From contig JANBPT010000488.1 of NCBI GenBank assembly GCA_027575765.1, positions 1 to 33,801 of the forward strand: a DNA stretch of 33,801 bases, given 5' to 3'. Below are positions 2,966-22,648 of the stretch, piece after piece; within the stretch, counting starts at the first letter, position 1; every line of letters begins with the position of its first letter. The position numbers and the translations under genes were made by a program. Below the pieces are notes generated by a model. That model saw nothing but the letters and a program-made list of their open reading frames with translations. It was not told where the DNA came from and made no database searches. The DNA comes from Tieghemiomyces parasiticus. Taxonomy: Eukaryota; Kickxellomycota; Dimargaritomycetes; Dimargaritales; Dimargaritaceae.

Positions 2966-4072
2966 ATGGTTCGTCTTACCGCTAGCGTCACTACCATTGT
3001 AGGGTTGCTTTTCACTCACCTGGCAGCGCCTGGTAGGGTGCGTGCCAGCCCCTACCCGGCCGACCCCTCGCCAGTCGTGGTTGTCACCACCACAACTAGC
3101 AACAGTATTGCCCCGATGTCGACGTTGTACGCAGTATCACACCCACCCCGCGCTGGCGGCGACCAAGTGCTTGCTAATCCGACCGTGGTTGCCAGCGTGC
3201 CTGCTGCTCCGACAGCCCCGACCGCACCGGTAGTCCCCGTAACCTCAGCTGCGCCTGTCACCCCGACAGTCTCCGCTGTCGCCGAACCATTGGCAAACGT
3301 GGTTGTGCCCGCTGGACCTCCGGCCAATAATCCCGCCATAACCTCGAGCGTCTCCCCCGCCCCTGCTCCGGCCACCACTGCGGCTGCTCCCGCCGGACCA
3401 CCGGCCCTTGATACCGCCCCTGCTCCGGGGATTACCAATGCCGGAAACACTGCCGTGACCTGCTGGAGTAAGACCTACACCCTGACGAAGGAGGAGCTGA
3501 GCAAGGACTTCAAGTTTTCTTGCCCCAACCATGTGACCTTCAACAACGGTGCCATGCAGTGGAGACTGGACGACCAGTGCGCCGGAGCCGGTCTCGAGTA
3601 CGGCCGCAACGATATCTGGTACGGCCGCGCCTCCATCACCATGAAGGTCGGCGCCAACTCGGGTGCCGTCACCGCCTTCATTCGCGGTGTTCCTGAACAT
3701 GATGAGATTGACCTTGAATGGGTCGGAAAGGACACCAAAGATACTCAAACCATGTATTTCGTAGGCGGCAAGCGCGTAAATGGTGACGATCTAGGAAAAA
3801 AACACAAAATGGGCAAAACGGACTTTGCCACGAGCTTCGTGGAGTACGCTATTGACTTCACCGCGACGCAGATCCAGTGGATTATGGATGGTAAGGTTAT
3901 CCGTACGCTCAAGAACGATTCCAAGAAGAAGTACCCGACCAATGCTCGCGCCTGGATCATGAACATCTGGAACGGCGGGGCGACCAGTTCCGATTGGGCC
4001 GGCAAGACAGACTGGTCCAAAGGACCTTCGACCGTGGAAGTTAAGAAACTATCGTTCCAGAGCTATTGCTAA
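2966..4072 (+). CDS. Secreted GH16 CRH-type transglycosylase (Crh1/Utr2-like)
   Basis: Single-exon gene of 368 residues starting at an ATG in good context (aagccATGg). Residues 1-27 form a hydrophobic signal peptide. Residues about 35-160 are a Pro/Ala/Val/Thr-rich, probably O-glycosylated linker with imperfect AGPPA and PAPAP repeats. Residues about 165-368 are the GH16 jelly-roll domain. The catalytic signature DEIDLEWVG lies at 246-254, giving E247 as nucleophile and E251 as acid/base. Paired cysteines (C166, C186, C204, C368) fit the CRH group. Known CRH enzymes move chitin chains onto beta-1,6/1,3-glucan in the fungal wall. No C-terminal hydrophobic GPI signal is visible (the protein ends SFQSYC) and there is no CBM18, so a soluble secreted or wall-trapped form is likely. 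The family call is firm; the exact donor/acceptor pair is inferred. Confidence 0.93.
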   Translation: MVRLTASVTTIVGLLFTHLAAPGRVRASPYPADPSPVVVVTTTTSNSIAPMSTLYAVSHPPRAGGDQVLANPTVVASVPAAPTAPTAPVVPVTSAAPVTPTVSAVAEPLANVVVPAGPPANNPAITSSVSPAPAPATTAAAPAGPPALDTAPAPGITNAGNTAVTCWSKTYTLTKEELSKDFKFSCPNHVTFNNGAMQWRLDDQCAGAGLEYGRNDIWYGRASITMKVGANSGAVTAFIRGVPEHDEIDLEWVGKDTKDTQTMYFVGGKRVNGDDLGKKHKMGKTDFATSFVEYAIDFTATQIQWIMDGKVIRTLKNDSKKKYPTNARAWIMNIWNGGATSSDWAGKTDWSKGPSTVEVKKLSFQSYC

Positions 4073-6337: not shown

Positions 6338-8743
6338 TCAGGCCGTGCGGCCGACGATGTCGAGGCGGTACACGACGATACGCCCATAAAAGTCAGTACT
6401 TGTAGGGAATACGAGTCTAAGACGAGTCATAGTGGTGCCTGTGAACCGCTCTGGGGTGGCCTCCATATCTGTGCTAATGAGCGTCACGGGAGCTTCGCCG
6501 GTCGAGTCTGGTACTTTAAAGACGTGTTTACGATATCGATGTGGTTGGATAATGGGGAAGGGAGGGTGATGGAGGTAAAGCAGGTTCCAAGAAAGATAGT
6601 TAAGGGCACACACACACAGACACACGGAGCTGAGCAAGAGGAGGGGTCACATTTCTAGATTCGCTTGGTGTCACGGAGCATGGGTAATAGACTGGACCAT
6701 CCGGCTTAACGAAGAAGCGAGGAAACCGGCGATTAACGGCGGCCAGAATCAAACTGGTTAGCCGCATCGAAATAGCTAAGATCGAGATTTGGTCTAGCCG
6801 AAAGCAGTACGTGAGTGCAGTGAATGTGAGGGAAGGGGTGACGGTTATACGCCGATCCAGGCCAAAGTATTCTCGTAGGGTATCCCAAGGAAGGGTCCCT
6901 CGATCAGTGTAGCGCCCCAATGGTGGTCTGGTGGCGGCCGCTGATTCGAGCGAGTGGCTAAAGGGGTGCCTCCATTAATAATGTAAGTCACTCGACGTCG
7001 ATCAGGATAGAGATCCAGCGAGTGGTTATGAAACGGAGGAGTGGGCCTAGCGTTGTGGGGTAGGGAGGGCCCGGGACCGTTGCGAAGGGGAAAAGAGAAA
7101 TAGACGCAGGACCAAGGAACAATAAGGTGAGGGGGAGCGGGGGCTCAAGCTGGGTTGATCGGGGAATCACGTCTGAGATTGACCTCTAATACCATCCGGC
7201 GGCTGGGGTGCTGAGAAGGAAGGGGAGGGGCCGATTCAATAAAAAACGGGGAAGATGTCAATGCTATTTGCCCTCATTATGCTTCGATAGGGGAAAAGCG
7301 ATACGTCTGAGGGACCCTCCGTGGCTGGGGTAGGTGGGCGACATATATCAAGCGAGTAGTGCAGGGTTCGCTGCGCCCCAGAGGATCCGGTGATCACAGC
7401 GGGCACTCATACCGTTAATTCGCCAGTATTGACATACGTTGTAAAATCCTATGGCCCAGATAGTCTTATTTCTCCCCAATTGCCATACACTTAGCGTCCG
7501 AGTATTTACAGATACCAGGCGTTGCATACCAAATAGTAATTTGGTCAGGACCTTGGATATTGGCGACAGAGCACTATATCCTATCTACGCATACTGAACT
7601 CCCAGAGTGACGCTGGGAAAGTGCCTTTCACCGACTTACCCTACTTAGTCAGAAATACGGGCCCCGGTTGAAGAATGCGGGTTAGAGCAAAGCCGCCGCA
7701 GTGCCACACCCCGCTGATTTGGCATAAGAGATGGCTGGTCGCGTGGGCCGGGTGACGGACCTGCCATCCGCTAGATATTAAGGCATCGACGCGGCCACAA
7801 GCGGAACCCGGTCGCATCCCTGAGCCCGCCATTGCCCCCACCCACCGAATAGCCGTTTGCTACCTATATCCCGGCCCATCGTATTCACATACTAGGTACG
7901 TTCTAAAGAGGCGCGGCCGATTAAACAAGTCAAATGCAGAAAGTACGGAAGAAAAAGCCGCCGAACAAGAAAAAATACAGTGCTGTTGATCAAAAAAATC
8001 GAGGATATCTGTAGTGCGTTAGTGTCTTCAGGATAGAAGTCAAACCAGGGTCGGGGACGCTCGTCGCCCTCCGCTGCCCACACCTGGGCGTTCTTGCCAA
8101 CGAAGCCACCCTGGAACATGAGCTGTATGTTCTCAATCACGACCGGGGTGTCGAATTTGAGATTGATGAACTGAGGCTCTCCCTGGTTTAACGGGAATTA
8201 TTCCATGTTAAGGTGGAGAGTGAAACGATATATGATGGTGAAGCGGGCTCGGAATTAGGAAAAGGGGGACAAATAGGCCACTCGGAAACACCGATAGTCA
8301 ATTGGCGCGAAGGGAGGCGTACAATGGATAGCTAGCTGCCCTGCCACTCTGGCAGCAACAGCGTGCTTGGCCGATAAATCGCCTAATAGCCCAGGAATTT
8401 ACCATTCCGCCTGGAACCCTGCCTTCGCCCTTGTTTAACTTGCCTTGTCGGAAGCCCAGCACGTTTCATCGTCGCCGTCGGTGAGTTTGCGATTGCCATG
8501 GTTGCGCGTATCCCGATTGAGCACCGAGCTTAGTCTGTGGTGGCGAGCGTGGTCAATCGGGAATGTAGAGGCCAGCCGGATGAGTAACCATTCGACTTGC
8601 GCCAATAGGAGGAGGGGGGAAGACCCATCAGCGCCCTGTTGGCATGCAATGCAAGTGCAAGTCGGCCGGTCGACGATTCCGCGTTAACCCTTTTGCTCGG
8701 TGTCTTACCCGATGGTCGTGATATGCTTGACGAGACTGACCAT
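6338..8743 (-). CDS. NR2C2AP: NR2C2AP-like discoidin-fold protein, four exons
   Basis: Spliced by hand from exons 8743-8709, 8534-8444, 8182-8009 and 6523-6338 (35+91+174+186 = 486 nt, 161 residues). All junctions keep frame. Exon 1 gives MVSLVKHITTIG. Exon 2 carries LSSVLNRDTRN and DDETCWASDK, and exon 3 GEPQFINLKF, LMFQGGFVGK and FDFYPEDTNALQ. Exon 4 has LVFPTSTDFYGRIVVYRLDI. These match, in order, the blocks of the animal NR2C2AP (TRA16) family, an F5/8C-like (galactose-binding-like) single-domain protein of about 140 residues. The extra length lies between the LQ and the last beta strands. Function in fungi is unknown; the human protein is described as a nuclear-receptor (TR4) co-factor. 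Intron 1 is GT-AG, intron 2 is GC-AG and intron 3 begins ATATCCT. The exon 4 start is uncertain: an alternative in-frame AC acceptor at 6585-6584 would add 20 residues. Confidence 0.82.
6524..8008 (-). other. Candidate U12-type (AT-AC) intron, intron 3 of the NR2C2AP-like gene
   Basis: Directly after codon CAG (8011-8009) the minus strand reads ATATCCTCG, almost the U12 donor consensus ATATCCTTT. No GT donor lies within the next 20 nt. The homologous protein resumes in phase at exon 4 after AC at 6525-6524 (phase 0). A nearby alternative is GCCCTTAAC (branch A at 6600, 7 of 9 matches to TTCCTTAAC) followed 16 nt later by GGAAC, ending the intron at 6584; that acceptor is also in phase. The first choice gives 1485 nt, the second 1425 nt. 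I see no other gene or repeat inside it. Confidence 0.62.
8183..8443 (-). other. GC-AG intron 2 of the NR2C2AP-like gene
   Basis: The donor AAG/GCAAGT (intron from 8443) is the classic strong GC donor context, and the acceptor is AAACCAG/GG (intron end 8183). Reading through meets TAA within three codons, and joining restores WASDK-GEPQF of the family. A TTAAC branch-like site lies roughly 30 nt before the acceptor. Confidence 0.75.
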
Positions 8744-19055: not shown

Positions 19056-20159
19056 CTATAGATCTGATTGCGACGTCAAGGACCCGTTGCTCTCGCGAGG
19101 CGTGTTCGGCTCAATGGTACATCCGGCATCGAGTTGTAACTTCATGATCCGGTCGCCGACACGATGGGCCTGGTTCGGATCATGGGTGACCCAAAGACAA
19201 GTATAATCCCTAAGGGTCCGTTCGACCTCGCGTGCGGAGGTAGGATCAAGGGCGCTGGTCGGTTCGTCGAGCAAAAGTACATCAGGTTTACAGGCGACAG
19301 CGATGGCCAGAGCGGCTCGTTGGGCCTGGCCACCGGAAAGGTTCCGCCACTCGCTGCACCAGCATTCTTCAGGTAGCCCCCAGGCGTTACCAATCTCGAC
19401 AGGGTCATCCCAGGTGGGTTTGGCGACGTGGGTGGAAAACTGCTTGATCTTGAAGAAAAAGTCTAGTGGGGAGCCTGGGAAGATGGCTGGATATTGTGGG
19501 ACATACATGACGCGTGACCGCCACTGCGGGACACCCATGGCCTGCGGACTCAGGTCCGGCGCTGTACCGCTCCCGGCCTCCCCTTGATCATTTTCGTCGT
19601 CGTTGTCGTTGCCATGGCGTTGGTTATCTGGTTCGAGGTAAATCACCCCGTGGTCGTAGTCAGTGAGCTGGGCGATGGCTCGTAGGAGTGTGGTCTTGCC
19701 CACCCCGCTGGGTCCCTGAATCACAAGGGTCTCCCCGGACTCAACGGTGAACCCGATATTATACCACATGAAGTCCGACGCGTCCACGTCGGAGGGTGTT
19801 GAGAGCGTAACATCTTCGCCGGGGACCGACACCGAATCGGCCCCGTCACCATCGTGGGTGGTGTCAGCCTCCACATCCGCTTCAGCAGCTGCGTCGCTAT
19901 CGGAATCGTTGCCTGTAGCTGGCTTGGTGCTATGGCTACCTGGCTCCCCGCGCCGGTGACGGTGCGAGCCGCCGTGACCGGATTTGCTGTGTGACGATGG
20001 GGTCCCGTTGCTGTTACCAACCCGCGGGGCCGAAGGTACCGGATGACTACATACGCTGGAGCGGGAGGAAGAGGCCTGCGAAGGTGGACGGAATTGCTTT
20101 GCTGAACCAGTACGCTTCTTGCTCAGCTCCTTCACTATCAAGTGAACGGTGGGTGACAT
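19056..20159 (-). CDS. Stand-alone ABC ATPase, FetA/STAR1-like
   Basis: The frame opens further upstream, but 20159-20157 is its only ATG before the domain and gives 367 residues. MSPTVHLIVKELSKKRTG supplies the first beta strand of a nucleotide-binding domain. About 110 low-complexity, His/Ser- then Asp/Glu-rich residues then intervene before WYNIGFTVESGETLVIQG. Numbered from this ATG: Walker A GPSGVGKT at 149-156, Q-loop in VPQYPAIFPG near 222, signature LSGGQ at 274-278, Walker B VLLLDE at 294-299, D-loop SALD at 302-305 and H-loop His at 326. A second acidic insert (EPDNQ to PQAMG, about 176-208) precedes WRSRVMYVPQ. The order and the WRSRVMYVPQ..IFPGS..D.F spacing resemble bacterial FetA (YbbL) and plant STAR1, which pair with a small FetB/STAR2 permease for metal handling. 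No permease gene is in the window. Substrate unknown; intronless. Confidence 0.82.
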   Translation of the reverse strand: MSPTVHLIVKELSKKRTGSAKQFRPPSQASSSRSSVCSHPVPSAPRVGNSNGTPSSHSKSGHGGSHRHRRGEPGSHSTKPATGNDSDSDAAAEADVEADTTHDGDGADSVSVPGEDVTLSTPSDVDASDFMWYNIGFTVESGETLVIQGPSGVGKTTLLRAIAQLTDYDHGVIYLEPDNQRHGNDNDDENDQGEAGSGTAPDLSPQAMGVPQWRSRVMYVPQYPAIFPGSPLDFFFKIKQFSTHVAKPTWDDPVEIGNAWGLPEECWCSEWRNLSGGQAQRAALAIAVACKPDVLLLDEPTSALDPTSAREVERTLRDYTCLWVTHDPNQAHRVGDRIMKLQLDAGCTIEPNTPRESNGSLTSQSDL

Positions 20160-21099
20160 CGTGTAATAGAGAATTGGTTTTTCGAGATGGAGGGTGGGAT
20201 CAGGTGAGGATGTTTGAAAGATGCAAGCGTGACGAGACAGACAATTCGGCGCGGTATGGTACAAATGGCTGCTACCAGAGTATGGTTGGAGAGAGAACCC
20301 TGTATCCCAATAAATACAAATGCAAAGAACGAGGAAGGGCTGGGAAGTAACCTGCGACCTCCAAAGTCGGCACAGCTTGTGACGCGCTACCGCTGGCCCC
20401 TGGCTAGCCCCTAAAACCTATCCTGCCTTACTCGTGGACCTGGGCTTTACAATCGGTTCATTCTGCGTTGGGCACTCCTCCTACCAACCACAACATACCA
20501 TGCCACTGGCGGAATAGACAGGCAGGGGGTGGCGAGTCATGGTTTTTGAATACCAGTTATCGTTTCTTCGAGCATCTAATGCGTACGCCTTGCCACTCCC
20601 AAACTGCCAATGGCCACAACACCGCCATTATATCGCAGAGGTCAGAGCCACGTCACCCGGACTAACGCCAATGCAACCAAACCGATATATCCTTATCCTG
20701 ATAGCAGGCAGTGATGCCCCACCCACCGTATCAGGGCCGCCACCTGCTCTCTCAGGCGCCTAATGCTATTCGACAGCTACCCGTTTCACTCTAATTGCAT
20801 TGCATCCTACGACCACGATATGGAAGCGCATAAAGTCAGCAGCGGGTCTAGTACATAAGTGAATTAGTAGAGCAGCGACCGGAGAAACCAAGCCTCGGTG
20901 GCTAAATATAAGCAATGACCAGCTGCGGCCCAGCGGTAGGCTGGGTGGGTGGTGGAGGTGCATATCAACAAAGCGCAAAGTAGCCGGAGCGGCAAAGTAA
21001 AATATAGTGTGGAAAAATATGAATAAGAAAATAAAGCAATGCTCCCTCTGGGACGACAGGAATCAATGGGAGGTTTACCCTGTTTCCCAGGTTGGGCTC
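20160..21099. other. Spacer between the ABC gene and ALG10
   Basis: About 940 bp holding the promoter of the minus-strand ABC gene and the 3' flank of ALG10. No convincing gene. A segment at 20335-20410 looks vaguely tRNA-like on the minus strand but does not fold (see rejected items). Confidence 0.5.
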
Positions 21100-22648
21100 T
21101 CACCACATGAACCGTTGTAGCACGCCAGGTTCCTGGAACCATTCGAAGGGCCGTTGAAGGAAGAGGTAGAGCGTCGCGTAATTGACTACGGTGTACCACA
21201 CAAGTTCGTAGGCGGTGCGGTGGACCTTAGGCAGAGGCATGTTAAGGCGGAAAAAGTAGAAGGGCAGGATAAAGTACCGGAACTCAAACAGCGGGCTGGG
21301 AATCAGGGTCAGTGCCGTGCAGGCCAGGTACACGAGGCACCAGAGCAGGGTCTGCTGGGTGGCGATGACACGGGAGAGCAGCCAGAAGGCGAAAAAGTAG
21401 CCGGGGACCAGGGCGTAACGCACGCTCGGGTGGGACTGGTAAATATCCTTCCATACGTAGAAGGAGTAGTGGCGGTTGTCGGCCAGGATGAACGGGTGCT
21501 CGTAGGTGAAGCGGTGGATGGAGTAGGCCGTGCCCACGATCAGAAGGACGCTGAGCCCGATGAAGCGCGTGCTGCGCAGATATTTGGCCGTGTATATGAG
21601 AAAGCCCAGCGGGGACTGAAGCCGGAACAGCAGAGGTGCCATAATGGCCGCTAGAAAGGCTGCGCAGTAGTAGATTTGCGGGAAGTGGAGACCGGCGACG
21701 TGGTGGGCCCGGTCGCCAAGCACGATACCGCGGTTAAGGACGAGAAAGACAATAAAGCACGCCTCGACCGCGGCGTACGGGACCAGGTGGGGCAGCCAAA
21801 CGTCGCGGTGGGCTAGAAGGTCGCGGCCCACGGCCACAAGGTGGTCGATACCTTCGTAGTACACGTTGAGGGAGAGGGCCGGCACGGCGGTGATCCGGCG
21901 GCGAACCTCGTCAGGTAGGCCGGGCGTTCGTCGGACCTCCTGGAGCAGGGCATTAACGGCCACCAGGAGGGTCCACACGGCGTTGGTCTGGCGGAAAGTC
22001 AACGACACGAAGCAGCTCAGGGCGGCGAGCCGGTGCCACCGTTTGAGACCCAGGTAGTATCCGAGCACAATGAAGAAGGTGGACCCTGCGTCGGTATAGA
22101 ACAGGAGTGACACAAAGTAAAGGACGGGGAAGCTGGCGATCGACGCGGCTTCAAAAAAAAGGCGGCGCTGCGGGTGGCCCGGGTTGCGTTCGCGTAGAAT
22201 GGCCACGGCCACCCCGTAGAGAGCCACCAGGAGCAGCCAATTGGTGTACCGGAGCATAGTTGTCGAGCAAGCCCACAGGCCGGCCGGGTCGGCGTAGTAC
22301 CAGCGAAGCGGGGCCGACAGGAGGGTAGACAACACGTAGAGGCCCGGCGGGGTGGTTAACTTGGGCTCCCAGTAGCCGTAGTCCCCGCGACAATAGGCCT
22401 GGGCCTGGGCTACATGGAACTTCTCATCCTGCGAAAACGAGGGGCCGGGTAGGAGGGTCGCGAGTAGGTACGGCGGGGGGGCGGTCGAGTTAGACGGCCG
22501 TCTGTAGTAGTGCCGGTGAGTTGGTCAGATGGTCCACCGCCAAACTTACCATATAGGGGTCGGGCACGCGCCGGTTGACCAGATGCACCAGCAGCCACGT
22601 CACGGCGCTGAAGGTAGCCCAGCAGGTGGCGGCGATGAGCTTGACCAT
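21100..22648 (-). CDS. ALG10: Alpha-1,2-glucosyltransferase ALG10 (DIE2), two exons
   Basis: Exon 1 is 22648-22550 (33 codons) and exon 2 is 22428-21100, giving 475 residues, close to human ALG10 (473). The intron (22549-22429, 121 nt) has GTAAGT and TTCGCAG ends, phase 0, and joins PDPYM to DEKFHVAQAQAYC. The DE pair (34-35) is the acidic motif of the first luminal loop in GT-C enzymes. Further family blocks are LTTPPGLYVLS, FRQTN (178-182), LHFPQ (280-284), ADNRHYSFYVWK (about 349-360), EFRYFILP (415-422) and the C-terminal QRFMW. About ten to twelve membrane spans are visible. The enzyme adds the last, alpha-1,2-linked glucose to the dolichol-linked oligosaccharide in the ER lumen, which promotes transfer by oligosaccharyltransferase. 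Nothing is missing. Confidence 0.96.

What the first reader, a model, noticed from the sequence alone, without database searches (positions are those of the whole stretch)
6524..8008. Probable U12-type AT-AC intron in a fungal gene
Seen: exon 3 of the NR2C2AP-like gene ends in CAG followed by ATATCCTCG (from 8008), with no GT donor nearby, and the homologous coding resumes in phase after an AC. A strong branch-like string, GCCCTTAAC, lies 16 nt before an alternative AC (6585-6584). Known: ATATCCTT donors and TTCCTTAAC branch sites define minor-spliceosome introns; these are lost from most Dikarya but have been reported in a mucoralean fungus. Inference: this organism keeps a working minor spliceosome.
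Basis: partly seen in the sequence, partly recalled or inferred. Interest (0 to 1): 0.8.

Follow-up and report, generated by a model that had tools for sequence, protein, structure and literature searches.

The report
Ancient minor-spliceosome intron in a mycoparasite
A gene of the mould Tieghemiomyces parasiticus carries a rare AT-to-AC intron at a site where some animals and other fungi seem to carry one too, and its genome holds one clear and one probable RNA of the second, minor splicing machine, both in altered form.

Summary
The minus-strand gene 8743-6338 is an NR2C2AP homologue; intron 3 is exactly 8008-6524 (1485 nt), CAG|ATATCCTCG...AAACAC|GTC, phase 0. Of 65 homologues 56 share the junction spacing; four gene models (Mortierella, Syncephalis, Branchiostoma, Pleurodeles) read QISF there, the translation of an unspliced ATATCCTTT. 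So the AT-AC site looks old and shared.

The genome matches Tieghemiomyces parasiticus (Kickxellomycota). It has U6atac above Rfam's cut-off and a probable, divergent U12 below it. U6atac has A-to-G at the base facing intron position +8, which is C here instead of T: a matched change, but from one intron.

Against: the CCTTAAC branch string lies 76 nt from the acceptor (optimum 11-13) and also occurs in a GC-AG intron of the same gene; U11, U4atac, U11-48K and 25K were not detected; a genome-wide pattern for short minor introns showed no excess; there are no RNA data. Best reading: descended from a U12-type AT-AC intron and removed by a minor spliceosome, with the branch site unsolved.

The parts
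8709..8743 (-). NR2C2AP exon 1 (start codon at 8743)
   Evidence: spliced translation intact
8535..8708 (-). intron 1, GTAAGA...CACAG, 174 nt, ordinary GT-AG
8444..8534 (-). exon 2
8183..8443 (-). intron 2, GCAAGT...CCAG, 261 nt, GC-AG; also contains CCTTAAC (8213-8207)
8009..8182 (-). exon 3, ends NALQ
6524..8008 (-). intron 3, AT-AC, 1485 nt, phase 0, ATATCCTCG...TATCGTAAACAC
   Evidence: second copy L006
8000..8008 (-). U12-type-like 5' splice site ATATCCTCG (7 of the 8 bases ATATCCTT; +8 is C)
6599..6605 (-). CCTTAAC, candidate branch site, 76 nt from the 3' splice site, preceded by a GT run
6524..6525 (-). AC of the 3' splice site (CAC|GTC)
6338..6523 (-). exon 4, VFKVPDSTG... to the stop codon

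Best explanation
Intron 3 of the NR2C2AP gene (8008-6524) is a phase-0 AT-AC intron inherited from a U12-type intron that sat at this codon boundary before animals and fungi split, and it is removed by the minor spliceosome of Tieghemiomyces parasiticus. Shown: the boundaries and phase, their preservation in a second copy, the junction spacing of homologues, and a U6atac gene in the genome. Strongly suggested: the shared old site (protein models only) and a divergent U12 gene. Inferred: that U6atac pairs with the 5' splice site (its A-to-G change matches the intron's +8 C), that U12 pairs with CCTTAAC or another branch site, and that the intron is spliced in the living cell.
For: Boundaries CAG|ATATCCTCG and CAC|GTC restore one 161-aa frame in both copies. 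Exons differ at 9 of 486 positions and introns at 114 of 1916 aligned positions between the copies; the first 10 and the last 28 intron bases are identical. Copy 2 has one more T in the T-run that starts at intron base 11 and lacks the base at 6557, so the frame cannot run through either place in both copies. 56 of 65 homologues match the Q-x-[FL] spacing that the CAC|GTC acceptor gives; 4 of 65 gene models read QISF there, the translation of ATATCCTTT, in two fungi and two animals. U6atac: two copies, 42.5 and 37.7 bits against a cut-off of 33; first 64 bases 64/64 identical while flanking stretches are 84-93%, inside the longest identical run (78) of that alignment. U12: one locus in two copies, with AAACUUAUGAGUAAGG, the first stem and an Sm-like AAUAUUUGG. 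Duplex energy of the donor with this U6atac is -7.8, against -5.7 for consensus with consensus and -4.2 for this donor with the consensus U6atac.
Against: No branch motif lies within the usual distance of the acceptor: CCTTAAC is 76 nt away, against an optimum of 11-13 nt (PMC3584512, passages), with six other ACs between and no hairpin to shorten the gap. The donor breaks the published RTATCCTT rule at +8 (rule in PMC2846911, section 8 part 1). U12 scores only 20.8 and 19.7 bits against a cut-off of 53, and its 59-base identical run is only the 8th longest in the allele alignment, so allelic conservation adds little for U12. U11 (E<=10), U4atac (E<=10), the U11-48K zinc finger (both hits are TRM13) and SNRNP25 (E<=1) gave nothing. 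A genome search for short introns with RTATCCTT and CCTTRAC gave no excess: 13 matches at 10 distinct places against 9 control matches; the stricter pattern gave 0. No RNA data.
Confidence: 0.84

Rival explanations
1. The intron has AT-AC ends but is removed by the major (U2) spliceosome.
For: A CCTTAAC string also stands in an ordinary-looking GC-AG intron of the same gene (8213-8207); no U12-type branch site lies near the acceptor; U11 was not detected.
Against: U2-type AT-AC introns begin ATAAG (recalled); this donor has ATATCCT. The same site reads as ATATCCTTT in 4 of 65 gene models. U6atac persists under constraint.
Confidence: 0.08
2. A U12-type intron with the reader's alternative acceptor GGAAC|CTG (6585-6584), using CCTTAAC about 15 nt upstream, adding 20 residues to the protein.
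For: Branch-to-acceptor spacing would be near canonical and the window copy stays in frame.
Against: Copy 2 would shift frame and stop; 56 of 65 homologues have no such insertion.
Confidence: 0.05
3. Ordinary GT-AG or GC-AG splicing with exon ends misplaced by the homology reading, or a decayed gene.
For: The intron is long (1485 nt) beside introns of 174 and 261 nt; a GC stands at 8017, 9 nt before the border; gene models in other species are inconsistent here.
Against: No GT between 8045 and 7978, and no AG between 6598 and 6524; using GC at 8017 would remove the conserved residues before the border; exons are conserved between copies (9 of 486 against 114 of 1916 in introns).
Confidence: 0.03

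Closest known systems
U12-type AT-AC introns of animals, plants and some fungi
   Same: ATATCCT donor, AC acceptor, at a codon boundary where four protein models of other species read as if ATATCCTTT had been translated
   Different: +8 is C; no TTCCTTAAC at 11-13 nt from the acceptor; far longer than the other two introns of the gene
Minor introns of Rhizophagus irregularis and Basidiobolus meristosporus (PMC10639083: outline, passages and section 25 seen)
   Same: non-Dikarya fungi keeping minor introns; Basidiobolus is placed in Zoopagomycota there
   Different: that paper counts 205 and 249 minor introns and, in Rhizophagus, all four snRNAs; here one intron, U6atac, and a U12 too divergent for the E-value of 0.01 used in that survey
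U6atac snRNA (RF00619) and U12 snRNA (RF00007)
   Same: U6atac over cut-off with GUUAGCACUCCCCU; U12 with AUGAGUAAGG and the first stem
   Different: U6atac consensus AAAGGAGAGAAGG is AGAGGAGAGCUAG here; after UAAGG the U12 has UAUACACACAC where the consensus has AAAAUAACG; U12 is below the family's cut-off

Membership tests
U12-type (minor) intron | 5' splice site close to ATATCCTT | tested here: met
   ATATCCTC in both copies, 7 of 8 bases
U12-type (minor) intron | strict rule RTATCCTT with only one C-to-T allowed at +5 or +6 (PMC2846911) | tested here: not met
   +8 is C; matched by a change in this genome's U6atac
U12-type (minor) intron | branch site like TTCCTTAAC about 11-13 nt from the 3' splice site | tested here: not met
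   only CCTTAAC at 76 nt
U12-type (minor) intron | AC 3' end paired with the AT donor | tested here: met
   CAC|GTC; frame, homologue spacing, copy 2
U12-type (minor) intron | orthologous to a U12-type intron elsewhere | tested here: inconclusive
   4 of 65 protein models read QISF (ATATCCTTT) at the site; the DNA of those species could not be fetched
U12-type (minor) intron | excised by the U12-dependent spliceosome | not testable with these tools
   no RNA data
Minor spliceosome of this genome | U6atac snRNA | tested here: met
   42.5 and 37.7 bits, cut-off 33
Minor spliceosome of this genome | U12 snRNA | tested here: inconclusive
   20.8 and 19.7 bits, below the cut-off of 53; hallmark sequence, stem and Sm-like site support it
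Minor spliceosome of this genome | U11 snRNA | tested here: inconclusive
   no match at E<=10, 39 of 1578 first-look candidates scored; no known-positive control
Minor spliceosome of this genome | U4atac snRNA | tested here: inconclusive
   no match at E<=10, 48 of 816 candidates scored; a designed pattern did not complete (16 busy replies)
Minor spliceosome of this genome | U11-48K, 25K and 65K proteins | tested here: inconclusive
   both PF05253 hits are TRM13; PF18036 none; 65K: one weak match outside the RRMs, L027, E 0.003, no RRM found beside it

The most novel reading that the evidence does not exclude
The fungus runs a remodelled minor spliceosome: U6atac and the 5' splice site changed together (A-to-G against T-to-C at +8), the U11 particle (U11 RNA, 48K, 25K) is lost or beyond recognition, and U12 finds a distant branch site through an extended helix in which its CACACAC run pairs with the GT run before CCTTAAC.
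Probability: 0.12. Interest if true: 0.82.

Novelty: new variant of a known kind. Interest (0 to 1): 0.52.

Why it matters
It puts a minor-spliceosome intron and minor snRNAs in Kickxellomycota, where my paper searches (listings, partly capped) showed none described, and suggests that Rfam cut-offs and GT-AG gene prediction together can hide a minor spliceosome. The matched change in U6atac and the intron, if it recurs in other introns of this genome, would be a natural test of how snRNAs and splice sites evolve together when few such introns remain.

Tried and rejected
Rejected: the alternative acceptor 6585-6584 (frameshift in copy 2); U11-48K from PF05253 (both hits are TRM13). Of the 17 matches of the RNPC3 search I printed the RRM frames of six loci (L022, L024, L025, L026, L029, L031) and read them, by my own recognition and not by a family scan, as poly(A)-binding protein, SF3B6 (twice), U2B''/U1A-like, another RRM protein and U1-70K, not 65K; the other RRM matches were not looked at. 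Led nowhere: ATATCCTT...TTCCTTAAC pattern, 0; relaxed short-intron pattern, no excess over control; canonical U12 19-mer with up to 2 mismatches, 0 against 1 in control, explained afterwards by the divergent U12; hairpin between CCTTAAC and the acceptor, none; Pfam scan of the L027 frame, only a sub-threshold TFIIA match; the RNPC3 protein search listed its best 120 of 822, which are animal or unnamed sequences, so it says nothing about fungi. The GT run/U12 CA run pairing was seen after the fact, and a second GT run stands elsewhere in the window, so it is only an idea.

Absences (U11, U4atac, 25K) have no known-positive control: the control genomes that the tool names in these answers are bacteria and archaea. 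Control matches at E<=10 in such genomes (U12 in 7, U4atac in 11, U11 in 3 of 14) show that weak hits alone mean little. What PF18036 covers (SNRNP25) and the U6atac/+8 pairing scheme are recalled.

Full report
What is there. The minus-strand gene at 8743-6338 has four exons and encodes a 161-residue protein. Searching the spliced protein finds 65 homologues at E<=0.001, many named nuclear receptor 2C2-associated protein, in animals and non-Dikarya fungi.

The boundaries. The genome has a second copy (contig C497, L006), 95% identical over the searched 1920 bases. Both copies encode an intact protein with the same junction. Exons differ at 9 of 486 positions (6 residues differ between the two printed translations), introns at 114 of 1916 aligned positions; intron 3 has 13 gap columns. 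Copy 2 has one more T in the T-run that starts at intron base 11, and lacks the base at 6557. Hence neither a read-through of exon 3 past the T-run nor the stretch from 6584 to 6557 can be coding in both copies. There is no GT between 8045 and 7978; the only GC close by (8017) lies in the conserved NALQ codons. No AG lies between 6598 and 6524, and of the four ACs downstream of 6557 only CAC|GTC (6525-6524) keeps the frame with CAG|. Copy 2's indels could in principle be assembly errors in homopolymers; the homologues below are independent of them.

An old site. In 56 of 65 homologues the residue after the equivalent Q (or M) is followed directly by F or L and then the next conserved strand (9 rows did not fit the expression, among them incomplete or misannotated models), the spacing that CAC|GTC gives. 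Four gene models instead read QISF: Mortierella antarctica P0015, Syncephalis pseudoplumigaleata P0026, Branchiostoma P0052 and Pleurodeles waltl P0060. ISF is what ATATCCTTT encodes in phase 0, so in these species an unspliced U12-type donor seems to have been translated by the gene caller. I could not fetch their DNA.

The organism. TRM13 from the own genome matches Tieghemiomyces parasiticus: P0067 lies on a contig of 26,495 bases, the length of C1003 here, and is 94% identical to the other copy (C1013), which was the query. The taxonomy places it in Kickxellomycota, Dimargaritales.

The machinery. U6atac: two copies over Rfam's cut-off; bases 1-64 identical in both, flanking stretches 84-93%; a TATA-like ATATAAG upstream and a T-run downstream. 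U12: nothing at E<=0.001; at E<=10 the only two matches, of 42 candidates scored, are the two copies of one locus (92% identical over 3.2 kb), so they count as one hit. They hold AAACUUAUGAGUAAGG, the first stem and an Sm-like site. The first 58 bases are identical and the 50 bases before are 41/50, but seven other identical runs in that alignment are longer, and bases 66-130 are no more alike than the flanks (59/64), so the case for U12 rests on motif and structure. Not found: U11, U4atac, the 48K zinc finger outside TRM13, SNRNP25. A weak match to a non-RRM stretch of 65K (L027, E 0.003; 34.4 bits to a five-sequence profile) stands alone: that profile finds no RRM in the 8.9 kb around it, so I do not count it.

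A matched change. The Rfam consensus of U6atac reads AAAGGAGAG where this fungus has AGAGGAGAG. By the known pairing (recalled: the second of these bases faces intron position +8), A-to-G there matches C at +8 of the intron, ATATCCTC. Predicted duplex energies: this pair -7.8, consensus donor with this U6atac -5.7, this donor with consensus U6atac -4.2, consensus pair -5.7 kcal/mol. It is one intron only, so this may be coincidence; G also pairs with U.

The weak point. The branch string CCTTAAC (6605-6599) is 76 nt from the acceptor, while a review gives 11-13 nt as optimum (PMC3584512, passages). Six other ACs lie between. The intervening RNA is unstructured (z 0.60). CCTTAAC pairs well with the U12 found (-10.6, helped by a GT run facing the U12 CA run), but CCTTAAC also stands in GC-AG intron 2. 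Short introns with RTATCCTT and CCTTRAC are not in excess in the genome (13 matches at 10 places against 9 control matches); that pattern covers only short introns, roughly 40-90 nt. The branch site is therefore unsolved, and by the strict definition the intron does not pass as a standard U12-type intron; I claim descent and likeness of working, not standard membership.

What is known. Larue and Roy (PMC10639083; outline, passages and section 25 seen) report 205 minor introns in Rhizophagus and 249 in Basidiobolus, a low ancestral density in Zoopagomycota, and used Rfam models at E 0.01. A term search of that text found no Kickxellomycotina, Dimargar or Coemansia. This genome's U12 (E 1.2) would not have passed that cut-off; whether the species was in the survey I do not know. 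Bartschat and Samuelsson (PMC2846911, authors recalled; passages and part 1 of section 8 seen) report small sets in Rhizopus and Phycomyces. The one held paper with NR2C2AP and U12 is a rat bilirubin study, seen in the listing only. None of the papers listed (13 of 13; 20 of 115; 1 of 1; 1 of 1; 15 of 249) treats minor splicing in this lineage as far as titles and abstract starts show.

Verdict. A real AT-AC intron with a U12-type donor at what looks like an old shared site, in a genome with U6atac and a probable divergent U12.

Noticed in passing
window 8443-8183: Intron 2 of the same gene is GC-AG (GCAAGT), conserved in the second copy.
   Followed up: partly
L003 and L004 (contigs C1013, C1003): TRM13 carries the zf-U11-48K (PF05253) domain, so that Pfam hit alone is a false lead for U11-48K.
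   Followed up: yes
G000: C796/C497, C1314/C1306, C639/C623, C1013/C1003: Four loci looked at each occur as two closely alike copies on separate contigs: the assembly seems to hold two haplotypes or homeologues.
   Followed up: partly
L027 1501-1656, minus strand: Proline-rich protein with a stretch (ETVLNLASTMAAFPAFYGQVINLGHQLRIPSPFG) like the middle of U11/U12-65K, but no RRM found nearby.
   Followed up: partly
L020/L021 and window 6619-6608: U12 has a CACACAC run after UAAGGUAU; the intron has a GT run just before CCTTAAC, so the branch helix could extend by several pairs.
   Followed up: partly
L001/L002 and L020/L021: U6atac GAGAAGG is GAGCUAG here, in a part that (recalled) faces U12 helix I, and the U12 found has UGCCAAAAC where the consensus has UGCCUuAAAC: possible further matched changes.
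   Followed up: no
window 2966-4072 (+), 21100-22335 (-), 19056-20264 (-): Neighbouring reading frames match glycosyl hydrolase 16, DIE2/ALG10 and an ABC transporter domain.
   Followed up: no
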